Source: Phycisphaerae bacterium
GTDB taxonomy: Bacteria > Planctomycetota > Phycisphaerae > Phycisphaerales > Phycisphaeraceae
Direction: 5' to 3'
DNA: 64,000 bases
Assembly (NCBI GenBank): GCA_030432595.1
Contig: JAUIGU010000008.1
Coordinates: 1 to 64,000, forward strand
Below the pieces are notes generated by a model. It saw only the letters and a program-made list of their open reading frames with translations. It was not told the origin of the DNA and did no database searches. Both the position numbers and the translations under genes were made by a program. Of this stretch, positions 45,398-53,126 are shown piece by piece (positions within the stretch are counted from its first letter, which is position 1; each line of letters begins with the position of its first letter).

Positions 45398-46789
45398 ATG
45401 AAAGTTGCGGTGACGGTGCTGGCATTGATCGCGTGTGCGTTGATCGCCTACGGCGGATTGACACTGTGGAAGAACCAGCAGGTCGCCGGCTCGGACGCCG
45501 CGGCCGCGGCGCTGCAGCAAGAAGCGGACGCGCGGGAACTGGTCGAGGTCACCTTCGTGGTCACCGCCCCGGAGAACACGCCGGCCGACCAGACCGTGTA
45601 CGTGTCGGGCAGCCACCCGCAGATCGGTGCCTGGGAGGCCGCGGGGCTGCCGCTGGAGAAGCAGGACGACGGCACGTACCGCGGGTCGTGCGAGTTGCTC
45701 AGCGGGGTCGCGCACGAGTTCAAAGTCACGCGCGGGTCGTGGAGCACCGTCGAGCGCACCGCCGACGATGAAGAGGTCGAGAACCGGCCCTTCGTCGTCG
45801 AAGCGGGCCAGGAGGTCTTGGTGACGGTGGAAGACTGGGTGGACGACGGGCAGACGGTGCCAGGCCGCAACACCGCGGTGCCGGGCCTGCGGCTGCACGA
45901 GCGCCGGTTCTTCTCGACCGTGGACAGCACCAAGCCGCGCAGCCTCGTGGTCTATTTGCCCCCGGGCTACGACGACGATCCCGAGAAGCGGTACCCCGTG
46001 CTCTACGTCCACGACGGGCAGAACCTCTTCAACGAGTCGACCAGTTTCAACGGCGTCGAGTGGGGCCTCGACGAGGCCGCGCAGCGCCAGATCGAGAGCG
46101 GCGCGATCGAGCCGATCATCATCGTCGGGGTCTACAACACGGAAGACCGCGACGTCGAGTACGGGACGGGCGTCGCCGCGTACGCCGATCACTTCGCCGA
46201 CACGCTCAAGCCGTTCATCGACGAGACGTATCGCACGCTGCCGGACCGTGAACACACCACGCTCGCCGGCGCCGCGCTCGGCGGGCGCGCCGCGATCGAA
46301 GTCGCGCGGCACAAGCCGGACTTGTTCGGCACGGTCGTCGCGCTGTCGCCGTTCGTGGTGGACGAAGGAGGCAGCTCACTCCTCGACGGGTTGGCCGGCG
46401 ATGGCGACGCGCAGTCCTGGGCCGCCAACACGCGCTTCCGGCTTGACACCGCCAACACCACGCAGTTTTACGCGACCGAGTCGCCGGTCGAAGACCTCAC
46501 CGCCCTGGCGGACTGGCTCGAGGCCGCGGGGGCCGATGTCGAACGCAAGATCATCGAAAACGGCGAGCACCGCGAGGCGTCTTGGGGGCAACGCGCAGGC
46601 TTGATCCTGCTCGACCTCTACGGGTCGGACGCAGAAACCATCTCGCGGTTAAGCCCGCTCCGCGTCCCGCGGTGGCCATCGATCGGTCTTGAACAGACCT
46701 CGAATGACTGGCGGGCGTGGATGAAAGACCTGATGCTCGCGCCGCGTTCGTCTTACGAGGCGTACTACATCGAACTGTTCAAGTGCTGA
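45398..46789 (+). CDS. CBM20-esterase D-like protein with missing Ser nucleophile
   Basis: The 463-residue protein has an N-terminal membrane/signal segment (MKVAVTVLALIACALIAYGG). A CBM20 starch-binding-like domain covers about 48-145 (VTFVVTAPENTPADQTVYVS, HPQIGAWEAAGLPLEKQDDG). An EstD/enterochelin-esterase alpha/beta-hydrolase domain covers about 165-415 (SLVVYLPPGYDDDPEKRYPV, LYVHDGQNLF). The nucleophile elbow, normally G-x-S-x-G, reads AGAALGGRAA with Ala293 in place of Ser; the His in GEHREASW is kept. Ordinary esterase chemistry is therefore unlikely. It may bind starch-like glycans. Confidence 0.75.
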   Translation: MKVAVTVLALIACALIAYGGLTLWKNQQVAGSDAAAAALQQEADARELVEVTFVVTAPENTPADQTVYVSGSHPQIGAWEAAGLPLEKQDDGTYRGSCELLSGVAHEFKVTRGSWSTVERTADDEEVENRPFVVEAGQEVLVTVEDWVDDGQTVPGRNTAVPGLRLHERRFFSTVDSTKPRSLVVYLPPGYDDDPEKRYPVLYVHDGQNLFNESTSFNGVEWGLDEAAQRQIESGAIEPIIIVGVYNTEDRDVEYGTGVAAYADHFADTLKPFIDETYRTLPDREHTTLAGAALGGRAAIEVARHKPDLFGTVVALSPFVVDEGGSSLLDGLAGDGDAQSWAANTRFRLDTANTTQFYATESPVEDLTALADWLEAAGADVERKIIENGEHREASWGQRAGLILLDLYGSDAETISRLSPLRVPRWPSIGLEQTSNDWRAWMKDLMLAPRSSYEAYYIELFKC

Positions 46790-46815: not shown

Positions 46816-48180
46816 TCACGCCGCGTCCCGCCGTGCCCGCCGGTACTTGGTGTTGAAGGTTTCTCGGCGCCACCGGGTCTGTTCGTCGCTGTAGAGCTTC
46901 ACGACCATCTCGCGGAAGCCGCGGGTCAGTTGCTCCGCGGTCATGCCGCGCGGCTCGTAGTTGAGGTCGAACAGTGTGCAGCGTTCCCACCGCCCGTCGT
47001 GGGTGAGCCGGCCCTCTGCCTTGAGCCGTTTGTAAAGCGGCGTGCCCGGGAACGGCGTCTGCAGGGTGACCTGCACGTCGAACAGTTCGTACCGTTCCGC
47101 CGCGTCGATCACGCGGTCGAAGATCTCGGGCGTGTGCCCGTCCAGCCCGAGCACGAAGCAGCCGTTGACGCGGATGCCGTGCGACTGGATGTTGTGGATC
47201 GCCTCGGCGTAGCTCTCCAGTCTTCGCCGTTTCCAGTCGCCGCGCAACTCAAGCCGGTGGAGGCCTTCTTCGACCGGGCTCTCCAGGCCGATCAACACCT
47301 GGGCGCAGCCGGCCCGCCGCATGAGCATCAACAACTCGTCGTCATCCGCGATGGAGATGTCGGTCTCGGTGAACCAGCGCACGCGGCGCTTGGCGAGCTC
47401 GGGCAGCAGGCGTTTCCAGTGCCGACGGTTCGCGAAGCTGTTGTCGTCCGCGAACTCGAGGAACGGCCGCGGCCAGCGTTCGATCACCGCGTCCACCTCG
47501 GCCAGCACCTTCTCGACCGGCTTGACCTTGTACTGATTCGTCAGCAGGATCGAGCTCGCGCAGAACTCGCAGCGCAGCGGGCAGCCGCGCGTGGTCTGCA
47601 CGGTGATGCGGTTGTAGCGGTCCATGTCGAGCAGGTGGTACGCGGGCATGGGCGCTTGGCCCAAGTCGAACTCGCGCGGCTGGCTGCGGTAGACCGGCGC
47701 GAGTTGGCCGTGCTCGGCGTCTTCGAGGATCTCAGGCCAACAGACTTCGCCCTCGCCGACCATCACCGCGTCGCAGTGCTGCAACGCTTCGTCCGGCAAC
47801 ACCGTGACGTGCAGCCCGCCCATGACAACCTGCGCGCCCACCCGCCGCGCGGCGTCGGCCACGCGGTACGCCTCGGGGGCCTGGGCGGTGAACGTCGAGA
47901 TCGCCACCAGATCGAACCCGATCAGCAACGCCTCGGCGTCGTCATCGTCGATCTGCTCGACGTCGCGGTAGACCACCTCGTGTTTGTCCGGCGTCATGCC
48001 CGCCAGCGTGAGCAGCCCCAGGCTCGGCAGCGACGCGATCGTCTTGCTGCGCTCCACGAAGCCCGGCAGCGTCAACCCCAGCTCGAGCAACTCCTGGTCG
48101 CACGCCCGCACCCCGCTCATCGCGATCAGTCCGATCTTCATTTGGGTTCCCGCCTTTCCTTTGCCAATTCTCGACTTCAT
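46816..48180 (-). CDS. B12-binding radical SAM protein
   Basis: The roughly 454-residue protein has an N-terminal cobalamin-binding-like domain (LPSLGLLTLAGMTPDKHEVV, VVMGGLHVTVLPDEALQHCD) and a radical SAM core with TRGCPLRCEFCASS (CxxxCxxC for the 4Fe-4S cluster). FADDNSFANRRHWKRLL, IGLESPVEEGLHRLELRGDW and NGCFVLGLDGHTPEIFDRVI complete the barrel. The reaction is unknown; relatives methylate or rearrange lipids and cofactors. The ATG at 48180 overlaps the upstream TGA (ATGA); ATG at 48141 is an alternative where homologues begin (MKIGLIAMSG). Last gene of a three-gene operon diverging from tetR. Confidence 0.85.
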   Translation of the reverse strand: MKSRIGKGKAGTQMKIGLIAMSGVRACDQELLELGLTLPGFVERSKTIASLPSLGLLTLAGMTPDKHEVVYRDVEQIDDDDAEALLIGFDLVAISTFTAQAPEAYRVADAARRVGAQVVMGGLHVTVLPDEALQHCDAVMVGEGEVCWPEILEDAEHGQLAPVYRSQPREFDLGQAPMPAYHLLDMDRYNRITVQTTRGCPLRCEFCASSILLTNQYKVKPVEKVLAEVDAVIERWPRPFLEFADDNSFANRRHWKRLLPELAKRRVRWFTETDISIADDDELLMLMRRAGCAQVLIGLESPVEEGLHRLELRGDWKRRRLESYAEAIHNIQSHGIRVNGCFVLGLDGHTPEIFDRVIDAAERYELFDVQVTLQTPFPGTPLYKRLKAEGRLTHDGRWERCTLFDLNYEPRGMTAEQLTRGFREMVVKLYSDEQTRWRRETFNTKYRRARRDAA

Positions 48181-48569
48181 TCAAAAACCGCGCCCACCAC
48201 CAGAACCGTGAACCACACGATTGACGACACCAACGCAACCACAGGCACCACGAAGCCGTGCCGCAGCGGCCTGCGCCACGCGGAGAGGAAGCAGCACGTC
48301 GGCATCGTGATGGCTCCGACCATGACCAACACGCCCGGGAACCAGACGCGCTGCGGTGTGAAGTCCAACGCCGACGCACTCAACGCCATCGCCAGCGCGA
48401 GTCCGCCCGTGCCGAAGAAGCTGATGTGCCCCAGCCGCGCGAGTCGGCGACGCCACGAGTCGTAGCCGCCCATAAAGTCCGCCCGGTGAAAACCCAGGCC
48501 CAGCACCGCGCCGCTGAGCAGCCCCAGCACGAACCAGACCCACGCGAAGGCGAACAGCCAACCGATCAC
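48177..48569 (-). CDS. Four-TM membrane protein
   Basis: A 130-residue hydrophobic protein with about four helices (WLFAFAWVWFVLGLLSGAVL, HISFFGTGGLALAMALSASA, VWFPGVLVMVGAITMPTCCF, PVVALVSSIVWFTVLVVGAV). Conserved-looking polar residues His47 and several glycines lie within or between the helices. No family name can be assigned with confidence. Overlaps the radical SAM gene by 4 bp and lies 33 nt after the preceding gene, so it is co-transcribed with both. Confidence 0.65.
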   Translation of the reverse strand: MIGWLFAFAWVWFVLGLLSGAVLGLGFHRADFMGGYDSWRRRLARLGHISFFGTGGLALAMALSASALDFTPQRVWFPGVLVMVGAITMPTCCFLSAWRRPLRHGFVVPVVALVSSIVWFTVLVVGAVFE

Positions 48570-48602
48570 GACACACCTCGCTTCGCCACCAAAGCCACGG
48601 GA

Positions 48603-49019
48603 TCACCACGCCGCACGGTCGTCGTCCACGTTCACGCCGCACACCTCGTTCACCACTGAGAACGCGCCCATCGCGCCGGCGATGATGCCCAGGCTCGCCA
48701 ACGCCCGCCACGGCACGCCCTCGGACGCGTGGTCCCACACCGCCAGCAGGCACAACGCCGCGCACCCGAAAATCGCCAGCGAGATGACGGCGAACGTCGC
48801 GGTCCGCACGGCCCGCTTAGGCAGCACGCCCCGGCGGTGCGTCCGCCCCATCGTTCGCAATCCGGAAGCGTCCGGCGATCGCCGCCCCACCCCGGCCTGG
48901 CCGACGCCGCCGACCGGGGTTCGGCCCTGTCCGGGCTGTGTGTCGGTTCCGTCGCGTGCTTCAATTCCCGTCGCGGGTCCGTTCCCCGCGGAGGTGCCCA
49001 CCGGTGCGTTCGTGTTCAT
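48603..49019 (-). CDS. Two-TM membrane protein, first gene of the operon
   Basis: A 138-residue protein with a long Gly/Pro-rich polar N-terminus (about 70 residues) and two membrane helices (TATFAVISLAIFGCAALCLL and LASLGIIAGAMGAFSVVNEV), ending in VCGVNVDDDRAAW. The last part resembles the 4-TM partner in having His/Cys near the membrane. GGGAG lies 6 nt before the ATG at 49019, which decides the start over a TTG at 49037. It diverges from tetR with an operator between. Confidence 0.6.
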   Translation of the reverse strand: MNTNAPVGTSAGNGPATGIEARDGTDTQPGQGRTPVGGVGQAGVGRRSPDASGLRTMGRTHRRGVLPKRAVRTATFAVISLAIFGCAALCLLAVWDHASEGVPWRALASLGIIAGAMGAFSVVNEVCGVNVDDDRAAW

Positions 49020-49080
49020 CGTGGTGCTCCCGTTCAAGACGCCCGTGCCACCGGTCCGATCCGGTATCGGTGATTTGTAG

Positions 49081-49109
49081 GTGACTACTTACGTTTTGTA
49101 AGTTATCAC
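49081..49109. promoter_or_regulatory. TetR-type operator between divergent genes
   Basis: GTGACTACTTAC and GTAAGTTATCAC are inverted repeats (10 of 12 positions) around a 5-nt centre GTTTT. The palindrome lies between the radical-SAM operon and tetR and overlaps possible divergent promoters: TTACAA-N16-TACAAA leftwards and TTACGT-N16-TACAGT rightwards. This is typical TetR autoregulation. Confidence 0.75.
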
Positions 49110-49159
49110 TTACAGTCTGTGTCGTCAAGCCCGTTTTCGCCCGATCCGGAGAAATTCGT

Positions 49160-49780
49160 ATGCCCCGCCCGAACCTTCAGGAACAACGCCGGGCCGAACT
49201 GCTGCCCGCCCTGGCCCGGGCCTTCGCCACGGACGGGTACGCCGGGACCACCACCGCCGGCCTCGCCGCGGCCACCGACCTGCGTGAGAACCAGCTCTAC
49301 CGGCTGTGGCCGTCCAAGAAGGCGATGTTCCTCGCGGTGGTCGACCACCTCTACGACCAGCACGTCGCCTGGTGGGAAGCCCAACTGGCCGACCGCCCGC
49401 CCGACGCCGCGATCGCGCACATCCTTGAAGAAGAGGGCCGGCACCGTGGCGAGTCCGGGCTGCACCGCATCACCTTCGCGGGCCTGTCCGAAGCGCGCGA
49501 CCCCGAGATCCGCGCAGCGCTGGCCGGGATGTACGAACGCTTCCACGCCTACATCGTCGACGTGCTCACCCGCCGCGCGACGAACCGCACGGGCGCTGCG
49601 AAGAAACGCAAAGCCAACAAAGCCGACGTGGAACAAGCGTCCCTGACCGCGTGGTCCCTGATCGCGCTGGGCAGCCTGACCAACATCGCCCGGGAGCTGG
49701 ACCTGTTCCCCGTCAAGACGCAGGAACGACTGTTTACGCAGGTCGGCGGCGCGCTGATCGACCCCAAGCCGCCGCACTGA
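49160..49780 (+). CDS. TetR family transcriptional regulator
   Basis: The 206-residue one-component repressor has the helix-turn-helix domain at the N-terminus: RRAELLPALARAFATDGYAG, TTTAGLAAATDLRENQLYRL then WPSKKAMFLAVVDHLYDQ. The C-terminal ligand domain is helical, with no recognisable ligand. The operator at 49081-49109 fits control of itself and of the divergent three-gene operon. Its 3' end overlaps the convergent PEP-CTERM gene by 47 bp (49734-49780). Confidence 0.9.
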   Translation: MPRPNLQEQRRAELLPALARAFATDGYAGTTTAGLAAATDLRENQLYRLWPSKKAMFLAVVDHLYDQHVAWWEAQLADRPPDAAIAHILEEEGRHRGESGLHRITFAGLSEARDPEIRAALAGMYERFHAYIVDVLTRRATNRTGAAKKRKANKADVEQASLTAWSLIALGSLTNIARELDLFPVKTQERLFTQVGGALIDPKPPH

Positions 49781-52700
49781 TGCCCAGCGCCAGCAAACCC
49801 GCCGGCTCGGGCACGCTCGCCCCCGGGAGCGACACGCCGCGGAAGTCCGGGGCGGGTGTGCTTCCCCAGTTCAGAAGAACGCCGTCGAGTTCGCCTTGGT
49901 CGATGACCCCGTCCGGCGGGTTGCCGATCCAGCCCGCGGGAACGCCCGCGACATCCGTGTTGACCCCCCAGTTCTGGAGCACGAGGTCCAGGTCGCCTTG
50001 CTCCACCTGCCCGGAGTCGTTGTAGTCGCCGAGGAGGCTGGCGATGAAGTTGCGCAGCACGATCTGGTCGAGGCCCGAGTCGATGTCCACCAGGAATGAG
50101 CCCAAGCCGTCGCTCGTGTCCAGGCGCGAACCAGGCGTCGCGTTGTCGAAGAAGCCGGTCAGGTTGCCGGCGGCCAACACGGTGAAGGTATCGCCGGGGT
50201 CGGGCAGGTAGCCGTTGATCAGCGACAGGTCAAGCAGGCCGTCGAGCAGCACGCCGCCGCTGACGCTGACGAAGTCGTGCTCGGTCACGGCCGCGGTCCC
50301 GCCGATCTCGATCTCAAGCGTGGCGTTGGTCTGTTGGGTGTAGTCGCCGACGATGGTGGTCGAGCCCGCCGACGCGCCGGGCGCCAGCGTGCCGCCCTGG
50401 TTGAGCAGGTCGCCCTGGAAGGTTTCCACGCTGAGGCGGCCCTGAAAGAAATCGAACACGCCGCCGTGGGTGTGATCGATGGTCGCCGCGAACAGGTTGC
50501 CCCCATCAAGATCAAGCCTGCCGGTGGCGTTGATGGTGGTGATGCCATTGGTGGGGAAGGTCGGCGTGCCGGTGACCAGCGTCGCGCCGGTCTGAACGGT
50601 CACCGTTGCGGTGCCCGCGGTGTCGTTGCCGATCTCCAGGTTGGCGCCGGGGCGTTGCTCGAGCAGCGTCCCCGCGCCGGAGATCGACAAGCGTCCAACC
50701 GCGTCGGCACCACTGGTAGCGATATCGATGGAGTTGGTGGTGGCCTGGCTGCCGCCCGAAAGGCTCCACAGTCCGTCGGAGTTGCTGAAAGCGTCGGCAA
50801 TCCTGACACTGAGCAAGTCGCCCACAGCGGCATTGGTAAACGCCAAGCGACCCGTCGCAGGGGATTGTGCGATGAAGGTGGTGCTGGTCGCCGTAAGCGT
50901 CGTTTCGTCCCCGTCCACGTTCAGCGTACCGTCGCCCGACGAGAAGCCTCCGACCAGCAGGCTGCCCACGGTCACGTCCGCACCACTCTCGACTGAGTAG
51001 GTTCGCCCGGAGTGGATCGCCTGATCGAAGCCGAAATCCACTTGGGCGTGATTCCTGGCGACCAGCGTGAGGTCATCGCCCAACATGGTGAACTCGCCGA
51101 AGTCGCCGACGGTCAGTGTGCCGCCGTCGATGGTCACCGGACCGCGTGCAAACACGAGCGTGGGGTCGCCGGAGACACCGACCACGTCGATCTCGCCGCC
51201 GGCACCGACCTGCAGGCCGCCGGTGCCGGTGGTCAGGCGGGACCCGTTGAGCATGCTGACGACGGCCGGGCCGCCGATGCCGACGGTGACCGTTGCCGCG
51301 CCGTTCTGCGCCAAGGTGCCGTCATCGAGGTTCACGGCCCCCGCTTCCAGATCGAAATCGCCCGTGGTGGTAAACACGCCGCCGTTGATGTCGAGCGTGC
51401 CGGTCTGCCGGATGGTGGTGTCCTGCGTCCCGGCGTCGAGGGTCCCGTTGCTATCGATCGTGATGGTGCCGGTGCCGCCGGCTGTTCGGCCCAACCTCAG
51501 ACCAGTAAACCCACCCGTGAGGTTCAGCTCCGAGCCGGTGCCGGTGATGGTGACCTCGGCTGAGTTTTGGTTTTGCCCAAAGGAAGCGACCTCGAAGTCC
51601 TCCATGGCGACCTGCGCGCCCGACTCGATCCGTAGCCGACCTGTGATCCCGGCCGACCCGAAACGAGCCAGTTCAACGTCGGCGAACGTCCCGACGGCGG
51701 CGTTCTTGAACTCGATGGTCGCGTCCTGGGTTTCGTTGCCCCATTCGCTGTCGCCACTCACGGTGACCGTGGAGCCGGTCCCGTCGACTACCAGCGTCCC
51801 GCCACCCGCATTGATCAAGGAAAAGCCCGCCACGTCGAACCGCGGGACGACGGCATCGCCACCCGAGTTCACCAGCAGGGTTTGCCCGTCCGCGACGTTC
51901 ATGCCCACGGTCGCCCAATCGATGAGCCCGTCGTTGCTGACCGTGGTCGTCCCGCCCACCACCCTGCGGATCGTGCCCGCCGTTTGCGACCACGTGCCGC
52001 CATCGATGAGAACGTCGCCCAGCAGGGAAGCGCTGCCGCCGCTGACGTCCAGCGTCCCGCGGACCGTCGTGTTGCCGTTGATGTTCAGATCCCCGCCGTT
52101 GACGTTAATCGTGCCGGTGGCGTTGATCGTCGTCGTGCTGCCGATGCGGGTGTCGAGCGTTCCGTTAGCCAGGACGTCGAGCGTGCCCGCACCGCCGGTG
52201 GCGCTACCGATGGTCAGGTCGGCCAGCACGTCGATCGTCGAGCCGGCGTCCTGCAGGGTCACGAAACCGGTGGCGTCGGTATTGGACGTCGCGATGTTGA
52301 GGTGGCCGGCATTGAGGGTGCCGCCGCCGAGCACGTTGACGAATCCCTGCGTGGCGTTGAAGTTGGAGACGCCCACCTCGAGCGTGCCCTCGCTGCCGGC
52401 GTTGTACCCAAAGCTCGCCGTCGCGTCGTTGCTGACGACCAACTGTCCGAGCGCCCCACGGCCGCCAATGAAATGGCCGCGGCTCGTACCGTCCACGGTG
52501 AGGCTCGCCGTGGTGCCGTCGACCGTCAGCAGGCCGTCGCCGTCGTTGCCCACGGACAAGATGCCGTCGCCGGCGACCACGTCGATTTGGCTGAGGATGT
52601 CGAGCCGCCCCCCGCCGATGACAAGGATGTCTTCGTCGGTCACGTCGCCGTCGTCGGTGATGGTGAGGGTCCGCTGGCCGGGGGTGCCCACAAGCTCCGG

Positions 52701-52973
52701 CGTCCCGCCATCGACGATGAGTTTGTCGATGGTCGGGCTGATGCCGAGAGCGACTTCGTATGTCGGGCCCGAGGAGACGCTGAACCGGGCGATGTCGTCC
52801 GCGTCGGGGATGCCGATGGGGGACCAGTTGGAGCCCTGGTTGAAGAGGCCATCGGCCGGGGCGGCCCACTCGAACGTCGCCGCCACGCCCGAAAGCGCCC
52901 AGAACGAGGACAGTACGACCAGCAGCAAACGGCCACGACCCAGCTCGCGAATGAAGCACGGTGTGCAGTGCAT
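49734..52973 (-). CDS. Large beta-solenoid PEP-CTERM surface protein
   Basis: The 1079-residue protein has a signal peptide (RLLLVVLSSFWALSGVAA). It then runs for some 900 residues as beta-helix repeats of the autotransporter/adhesin-like type (DGTLNVDGDETTLTATST, TINATGTINVNGGDLNINGN, DIATSGADAVGRLSISGAG). Residues about 980-1045 are the EF-hand-like module (SGQVEQGDLDLVLQNWG, VIDQGELDGVLLNWG), and the end is a PEP-CTERM anchor VPEPAGLLALGISAAAWG with Arg cluster. It would form a fibrous surface layer or adhesin. GGGAGG precedes ATG at 52973. Its stop region overlaps tetR. Confidence 0.8.
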   Translation of the reverse strand: MHCTPCFIRELGRGRLLLVVLSSFWALSGVAATFEWAAPADGLFNQGSNWSPIGIPDADDIARFSVSSGPTYEVALGISPTIDKLIVDGGTPELVGTPGQRTLTITDDGDVTDEDILVIGGGRLDILSQIDVVAGDGILSVGNDGDGLLTVDGTTASLTVDGTSRGHFIGGRGALGQLVVSNDATASFGYNAGSEGTLEVGVSNFNATQGFVNVLGGGTLNAGHLNIATSNTDATGFVTLQDAGSTIDVLADLTIGSATGGAGTLDVLANGTLDTRIGSTTTINATGTINVNGGDLNINGNTTVRGTLDVSGGSASLLGDVLIDGGTWSQTAGTIRRVVGGTTTVSNDGLIDWATVGMNVADGQTLLVNSGGDAVVPRFDVAGFSLINAGGGTLVVDGTGSTVTVSGDSEWGNETQDATIEFKNAAVGTFADVELARFGSAGITGRLRIESGAQVAMEDFEVASFGQNQNSAEVTITGTGSELNLTGGFTGLRLGRTAGGTGTITIDSNGTLDAGTQDTTIRQTGTLDINGGVFTTTGDFDLEAGAVNLDDGTLAQNGAATVTVGIGGPAVVSMLNGSRLTTGTGGLQVGAGGEIDVVGVSGDPTLVFARGPVTIDGGTLTVGDFGEFTMLGDDLTLVARNHAQVDFGFDQAIHSGRTYSVESGADVTVGSLLVGGFSSGDGTLNVDGDETTLTATSTTFIAQSPATGRLAFTNAAVGDLLSVRIADAFSNSDGLWSLSGGSQATTNSIDIATSGADAVGRLSISGAGTLLEQRPGANLEIGNDTAGTATVTVQTGATLVTGTPTFPTNGITTINATGRLDLDGGNLFAATIDHTHGGVFDFFQGRLSVETFQGDLLNQGGTLAPGASAGSTTIVGDYTQQTNATLEIEIGGTAAVTEHDFVSVSGGVLLDGLLDLSLINGYLPDPGDTFTVLAAGNLTGFFDNATPGSRLDTSDGLGSFLVDIDSGLDQIVLRNFIASLLGDYNDSGQVEQGDLDLVLQNWGVNTDVAGVPAGWIGNPPDGVIDQGELDGVLLNWGSTPAPDFRGVSLPGASVPEPAGLLALGISAAAWGRSARRRPA

Positions 52974-53126
52974 CTCGACCTCCCAACTTGAGAAGCGGAC
53001 GCAACCATCATCGAGGATCACGCCCCGTTGAAATCGCCCCATCGCCGGCGTAGCGCAAACCGCACCGGCCGCGGACACCGGTTAGATGCTACCTCGATAC
53101 ACACAAAAATAGAAGACATTGCTGAC

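What the first reader, a model, noticed from the sequence alone, without database searches (positions are those of the whole stretch)
46816..49780. TetR-controlled operon of two small membrane proteins and a B12 radical SAM protein
A 29-nt palindrome (49081-49109) lies between tetR and three co-directional genes linked by a 33-nt gap and an ATGA overlap. The membrane proteins have no recognised family. A cobalamin radical SAM enzyme co-expressed with membrane proteins under a ligand-responsive repressor suggests inducible modification of a membrane lipid or envelope component, or resistance to a lipophilic compound. I know of no described system with this composition.
Basis: inference. Interest (0 to 1): 0.6.

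Follow-up and report, generated by a model that had tools for sequence, protein, structure and literature searches.

The report
Inducible membrane-lipid radical SAM module
A planctomycete repressor controls a small operon whose core, a four-helix membrane protein plus a vitamin-B12-type radical enzyme, recurs as an inseparable gene pair across several bacterial phyla, often beside genes that repair or protect damaged membrane lipids; it looks like an undescribed membrane-lipid modification system.

Summary
The genes are real and largely as described, but their importance is uneven. The 130-residue membrane protein ('A') and the B12 radical SAM enzyme ('B') form a strictly paired module: in 61 relatives A and the B ortholog occur in the same 19 genomes, always together, and the pair recurs in Planctomycetota, Verrucomicrobiota, Acidobacteriota, Gemmatimonadota, Sumerlaeota and others, usually with stop-start overlap. 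A second four-helix gene ('C') often follows B but is absent here. The 144-residue protein is found only in a few close relatives. The 'palindrome' is really two 16-bp operators (GTAAGT-N4-ACTTAC) at the promoter; with up to one mismatch they are the only such sites in the 4.39-Mb genome, and the same operator precedes A-B in five other genomes. Orthologs of this TetR elsewhere neighbour DUF2339 (Arc3A family; protects against phospholipase toxins). Other A-B loci adjoin an LplT-Aas fusion, an alpha/beta hydrolase, DUF2157/GDYXXLXY, ACP, ketoacyl synthase or acyl ligase genes. Best reading: a ligand-induced membrane (lyso)phospholipid or acyl-chain modification module tied to lipid-damage defence. 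Pairing and operator are well supported; substrate, chemistry and trigger are inferred.

The parts
46816..48141 (-). 'B': B12-binding radical SAM enzyme, 441 aa from the conserved start (454 aa from the ATG at 48180)
   Evidence: Pfam B12-binding, Radical_SAM, DUF4070 above cut-off; CxxxCxxC = C187, C191, C194 invariant in 45 orthologs; orthologs start at MKIGLIAMSG
48177..48569 (-). 'A': 130-aa four-helix membrane protein, no Pfam or NCBIfam family; near-obligate partner of B
   Evidence: AlphaFold2 mean pLDDT 97.2, helices 3-26, 39-67, 72-98, 100-129; invariant W10 G20 G24 Y36 R41 R42 R45 H48 M89 P90 P109
48603..49019 (-). 138-aa protein (ATG start; 144 aa from TTG at 49037) with a hydrophobic, probably two-helix C-terminal part; lineage-restricted accessory gene of the operon
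   Evidence: homologs only in 4 of 61 relatives; in G010 it heads the same operon, in G001 and G009 it lies elsewhere
49098..49113 (.). Operator 1, perfect GTAAGT-N4-ACTTAC palindrome
   Evidence: same element upstream of A-B in five other genomes
49077..49092 (.). Operator 2, one mismatch, 21 bp from operator 1
   Evidence: G010 also has a pair
49123..49128 (-). Putative -35 (TTGACG); a poor -10 match (TAACTT, 49105-49100) lies inside operator 1; relatives have better ones (TTGACT-16-TATACT in G009, TTGACA-17-GATACT in G010)
   Evidence: aligned promoters; inferred
49160..49780 (+). TetR-family repressor, divergent from the operon
   Evidence: TetR_N 32.2 bits, cut-off 24; orthologs in other Phycisphaerales sit beside the same operator and beside A-B or DUF2339

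Best explanation
The TetR protein sits on two operators at the promoter and represses itself and a divergent operon (anatomy shown: operators, their conservation and uniqueness; repression itself is inferred). A lipophilic ligand produced by membrane damage or lipid imbalance, for instance a lysophospholipid or a fatty acyl derivative, releases it (inferred). The operon makes a four-helix membrane protein (A) and a cobalamin-dependent radical SAM enzyme (B) that act as one enzyme system (inferred from near-obligate pairing, overlapping genes and a permuted A that still travels with B). A holds or presents the lipid in the membrane and B changes an unactivated carbon of it, by methylation, C-C bond formation or ring rearrangement (inferred from the B12 radical SAM class). 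Where present, the second membrane protein C helps (inferred). Together with LplT-Aas, lipase-like hydrolases and DUF2339/Arc3A-type proteins this belongs to the cell's protection or repair of membrane phospholipids (inferred from shared operons and, in close relatives, a shared operator).
For: A and the B ortholog occur in the same 19 of 61 relatives and side by side; A directly upstream of B in 60 of 72 loci by gene calls, most exceptions being contig ends, missed calls or one or two inserted genes; 11 loci of more distant B12 radical SAM paralogs (up to 39% identity) have no A or C. Operator: only two sites with at most 1 mismatch in 4.39 Mb; 4 exact sites fall within about 200 bp upstream of the 19 A-B operons, 0.0002 expected. 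TetR orthologs in G009, G026, G030, G019, G035, G006 lie beside DUF2339; in G009 tetR-DUF2339 and A-B-C flank one operator; in G035 tetR-DUF2339 (one mismatch) and the distant A-B operon both carry it. DUF2339 is the Arc3A family, which prevents lysophospholipid accumulation under phospholipase attack, and aas genes often neighbour arc3 genes (PMC8926400; PMC12663445). LplT-Aas fusion or a related acyl ligase within 4 genes of A-B 12 times versus 2 farther away (p=0.03), identified as acyl-ACP phospholipid O-acyltransferase at 1168 bits; DUF2157+GDYXXLXY in 6 loci; ACP+KS in L089 and L090, ACP in L097, acyl ligase+ACP in L137.
Against: No experiment. No substrate-specific motif is known in B and it falls far below every named B12 radical SAM cut-off. 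DUF2339 and C are absent from this genome, so here the Arc3A link rests on the TetR orthology and operator. Most A-B loci have no lipid-repair neighbour. DUF2339 adjacency is only 3 loci (p=0.26). Loci are not phylogenetically independent, gene calls came from my own simple caller, and some MAG taxon labels are doubtful. A lipid ligand for TetR is an assumption.
Confidence: 0.45

Rival explanations
1. A-B is a specialised fatty-acid or lipid biosynthesis step acting on acyl-ACP, making an unusual membrane lipid all the time or on demand, with no defence or repair role; regulators and repair genes are incidental.
For: ACP and ketoacyl synthase directly upstream in two Verrucomicrobiota loci, with an old-yellow-enzyme gene in one; ACP downstream in a Gemmatimonadota locus; acyl ligase and ACP between A and B in L137; CDP-alcohol phosphatidyltransferase after B in L065
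Against: Patchy distribution (24 of 294, 11 of 289, 4 of 298 genomes) and TetR control look like an accessory, induced function; the phospholipid acyltransferase fusion is the commoner neighbour
Confidence: 0.3
2. A TetR-controlled detoxification or resistance operon for a lipophilic xenobiotic, with A as a MAPEG- or styrene-oxide-isomerase-like detoxifying enzyme.
For: TetR control; A resembles styrene oxide isomerase (Foldseek probability 0.92, TM 0.63; VIA Z 11.5) and MAPEG enzymes (Z 10-11)
Against: Such Z values are common for helical bundles; no sequence similarity; no efflux pump or degradation genes recur; lipid genes do
Confidence: 0.12
3. B modifies a polycyclic or cofactor-type lipid (hopanoid, quinone or porphyrin), as its nearest named relatives HpnJ and BchE do.
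For: Best NCBIfam matches are HpnJ and BchE
Against: Scores 76-110 bits against cut-offs of 578 and 481; no hopanoid, quinone or tetrapyrrole genes were seen to recur in the neighbourhoods
Confidence: 0.08

Closest known systems
Arc3 (DUF2339 Arc3A with Arc3B) and LplT-Aas lysophospholipid defence/repair
   Same: TetR orthologs and operators link A-B to DUF2339 in close relatives; LplT-Aas fusion and hydrolase genes adjoin A-B elsewhere
   Different: No radical SAM enzyme or A-type protein is described in Arc3 in the papers read; this genome lacks DUF2339; TetR rather than Gac/Rsm control
HpnJ, BchE and the 'ladder' lipid B12 radical SAM proteins (TIGR03471, TIGR02026, TIGR04072)
   Same: B12-binding plus radical SAM architecture; lipid or hydrophobic substrates
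   Different: Far below all curated cut-offs; near-obligate small membrane partner; different neighbourhoods
Styrene oxide isomerase / MAPEG four-helix membrane proteins
   Same: Four-helix fold of similar size; a conserved histidine in helix 2 (H48 here; haem ligand H58 in styrene oxide isomerase, PMC11374702)
   Different: No detectable sequence similarity; fold match within the range of common helical bundles; haem or glutathione binding untested
TetR repressors with paired operators
   Same: TetR_N domain, divergent promoter, dyad operators over the -10 region
   Different: Ligand unknown; operator sequence specific to this ortholog group

Membership tests
B12-dependent radical SAM superfamily | CxxxCxxC cluster motif and Radical_SAM domain | tested here: met
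   C187, C191, C194 invariant in 45 orthologs; Pfam 63.6 bits, cut-off 29.5
B12-dependent radical SAM superfamily | N-terminal B12-binding domain | tested here: met
   Pfam 59.1 bits, cut-off 32.1
B12-dependent radical SAM superfamily | Cobalamin and SAM use in catalysis | not testable with these tools
   needs purified enzyme
HpnJ (TIGR03471) | Curated score cut-off 577.6 bits | tested here: not met
   109.5 bits
Ladder-lipid B12 radical SAM (TIGR04072) | Curated score cut-off 360 bits | tested here: not met
   73.1 bits
TetR repressors | TetR_N helix-turn-helix domain | tested here: met
   32.2 bits, cut-off 24
TetR repressors | Dyad operator at own divergent promoter, conserved with orthologs | tested here: met
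Arc3 lysophospholipid defence | DUF2339 (Arc3A) protein in the system | tested here: not met
   no PF10101 match in this genome; present beside A-B in G009, G045, G057
Arc3 lysophospholipid defence | Protection against phospholipase, lower lysophospholipid | not testable with these tools
   experiment needed
Styrene oxide isomerase / MAPEG | Four-helix fold | tested here: inconclusive
   TM 0.63, Z 11.5 and 10.8, below the level safe for helical bundles
Styrene oxide isomerase / MAPEG | Haem b or glutathione site | not tested
   only the conserved H48 in helix 2 is suggestive; no residue-level superposition was available

The most novel reading that the evidence does not exclude
A previously unrecognised, horizontally spread membrane-protection system in which a two-part enzyme (A plus a B12 radical SAM protein) chemically alters phospholipids or lysophospholipids inside the membrane in response to lipid damage, as an enzymatic partner or substitute for Arc3A/Aas, for example making lipids resistant to phospholipases.
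Probability: 0.25. Interest if true: 0.85.

Novelty: new variant of a known kind. Interest (0 to 1): 0.62.

Why it matters
B12 radical SAM enzymes carry out difficult chemistry, some of it on lipids, and most have no known substrate. Here one is tied to a membrane partner family without a name, to a defined operator and TetR, and, through relatives, to the Arc3A and LplT-Aas lysophospholipid pathways; how Arc3A itself works is unresolved. That gives a concrete, testable route to a new membrane-lipid modification and to what Arc3A-type proteins do in phyla without Gac/Rsm.

Tried and rejected
Sequence search of A and C against solved structures gave nothing meaningful. C has no clear fold match. 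An apparent B-C gene fusion in L083 is a scaffold gap (run of N/X), not a fusion. Weak Pfam hints for the membrane proteins (Claudin_2, DUF4233) are below cut-off and rejected. An operator in G035 before two other radical SAM paralogs may be chance: the reversed control pattern gives 8 hits in the same 61 genomes against 11 real ones. Literature searches found no paper joining a radical SAM enzyme with Arc3 or LplT. A and C are not related by profile comparison; DUF2157 and DUF2339 show only a moderate match (79% probability, from a two-sequence profile).

Full report
WHAT IS THERE. The window lies in a 4.39-Mb, 73-contig genome, probably of a Phycisphaerales planctomycete, judged from the planctomycete records among the near relatives (one an Algisphaera MAG) and a PEP-CTERM-like surface protein next door. 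Genes and spacing match the finding. Pfam identifies the radical SAM protein (B12-binding, Radical_SAM, DUF4070) and the TetR; neither membrane protein has a family. Two corrections matter. The palindrome is a pair of 16-bp operators, GTAAGT-N4-ACTTAC, 21 bp apart. The conserved start of the radical SAM enzyme is at 48141, not the ATGA at 48180.

THE CONSERVED CORE. In 61 relatives, the 130-aa protein (A) and the B ortholog (60-80% identity) occur in exactly the same 19 genomes and are adjacent or nearly so. A wider search returned 27 B loci in records labelled Planctomycetota, Verrucomicrobia, Acidobacteria, Gemmatimonadetes, Sumerlaeota, Krumholzibacteriota and Chloroflexi (some MAG labels are doubtful). 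A precedes B nearly everywhere, commonly with a 4-nt overlap. Profile scans with A found it in 24 of 294 Planctomycetota, 11 of 289 genomes of L089's phylum and 4 of 298 of L097's phylum, and almost every hit had B next to it. Eleven loci of more distant B12 radical SAM paralogs had no A or C. A second four-helix gene, C, follows B in about 22 of the first 46 loci but is not in this genome. In L087, L088 and L182 the order is B-C-A', where A' is a circularly permuted A that appears to keep a histidine at the matching place. The 144-aa protein is found in this genome and three relatives, in two of them elsewhere.

REGULATION. The operator occurs upstream of A-B in six genomes: this one (two sites), G010 (two), G009, G035, G006 (one mismatch) and the planctomycete of L084. 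In this genome no other site exists with up to one mismatch. In G009 and G010 a good -35 (TTGACT, TTGACA) stands 16-17 bp before a -10 (TATACT, GATACT) inside the operator; here the -35 is TTGACG and the -10 is poor. Orthologs of the TetR (39-59% identity) occur in G010, G030, G009, G026, G035, G019 and G006; in all but G010 they sit beside a DUF2339 gene, mostly with operator copies. In G009 the order is tetR-DUF2339, operator, A-B-C. Other TetR types sit next to A-B in other lineages (L138, L139, L141-L144, L089); TetR genes are enriched near A-B (10 of 404 genes near, 0 of 313 far, p=0.003).

LIPID CONTEXT. DUF2339 is the Arc3A family, shown in Pseudomonas to prevent lysophospholipid accumulation under phospholipase attack, with aas genes as frequent neighbours (PMC8926400; PMC12663445). 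A-B adjoins DUF2339, an LplT-Aas fusion and an alpha/beta hydrolase in L069 and L070; LplT-Aas, usually plus hydrolase, and in three loci DUF2157 and GDYXXLXY, in the Verrucomicrobiota loci L173-L175 and L177-L179; a TetR, DUF2157 and GDYXXLXY in L141-L143. The fusion scores 1168 bits as acyl-ACP phospholipid O-acyltransferase, cut-off 1221. ACP and ketoacyl synthase precede A-B in L089 and L090, ACP follows in L097, an acyl ligase and ACP lie between A and B in L137.

STRUCTURE. A is predicted with high confidence as four transmembrane helices. Its nearest folds are a cbb3 oxidase piece, styrene oxide isomerase and MAPEG enzymes; this is suggestive only. Invariant H48 lies in helix 2; the haem ligand of styrene oxide isomerase is H58 (PMC11374702), which its loop boundaries place near the start of helix 2.

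MECHANISM. Shown by sequence: pairing, operator, a shared operator with DUF2339 in relatives, lipid-gene neighbours. Inferred: repression and its lipid ligand, physical A-B complex, lipid substrate, the reaction. I rate a membrane-lipid substrate at about 0.7, a damage or phospholipase-defence role at about 0.4.

LIMITS. No experiment; own gene caller; related loci counted separately; association of LplT-Aas p=0.03 and DUF2339 p=0.26.

Noticed in passing
L087:3359-3871, L088:1981-2493, L182 (172-aa gene): A-like proteins with helices in permuted order (2-3-4-1 plus a further helix-2-like segment), still in operon with B and C.
   Followed up: partly
L216 (G035:C1:4500405): Exact operator about 65 bp before two tandem B12 radical SAM paralogs without A; regulon member or chance.
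   Followed up: partly
L056, L063, L064, L214: A small deaminase-like gene (about 150 aa) repeatedly neighbours A-B in Phycisphaerales; in G036 the operator follows it at a contig end.
   Followed up: no
L072 (A gene just upstream of B), L075:3913-4362: Two loci have an A gene lacking its middle part; deletion or assembly fault unknown.
   Followed up: no
window 49734-53078 (-): Large repetitive surface protein with a PEP-CTERM-like end, its 3' end overlapping the end of tetR.
   Followed up: no
window 45398-46789 (+): Esterase with a starch-binding CBM20 domain, convergent with the operon.
   Followed up: no
L085:1919-4036: A second, larger B12 radical SAM protein directly after B.
   Followed up: no
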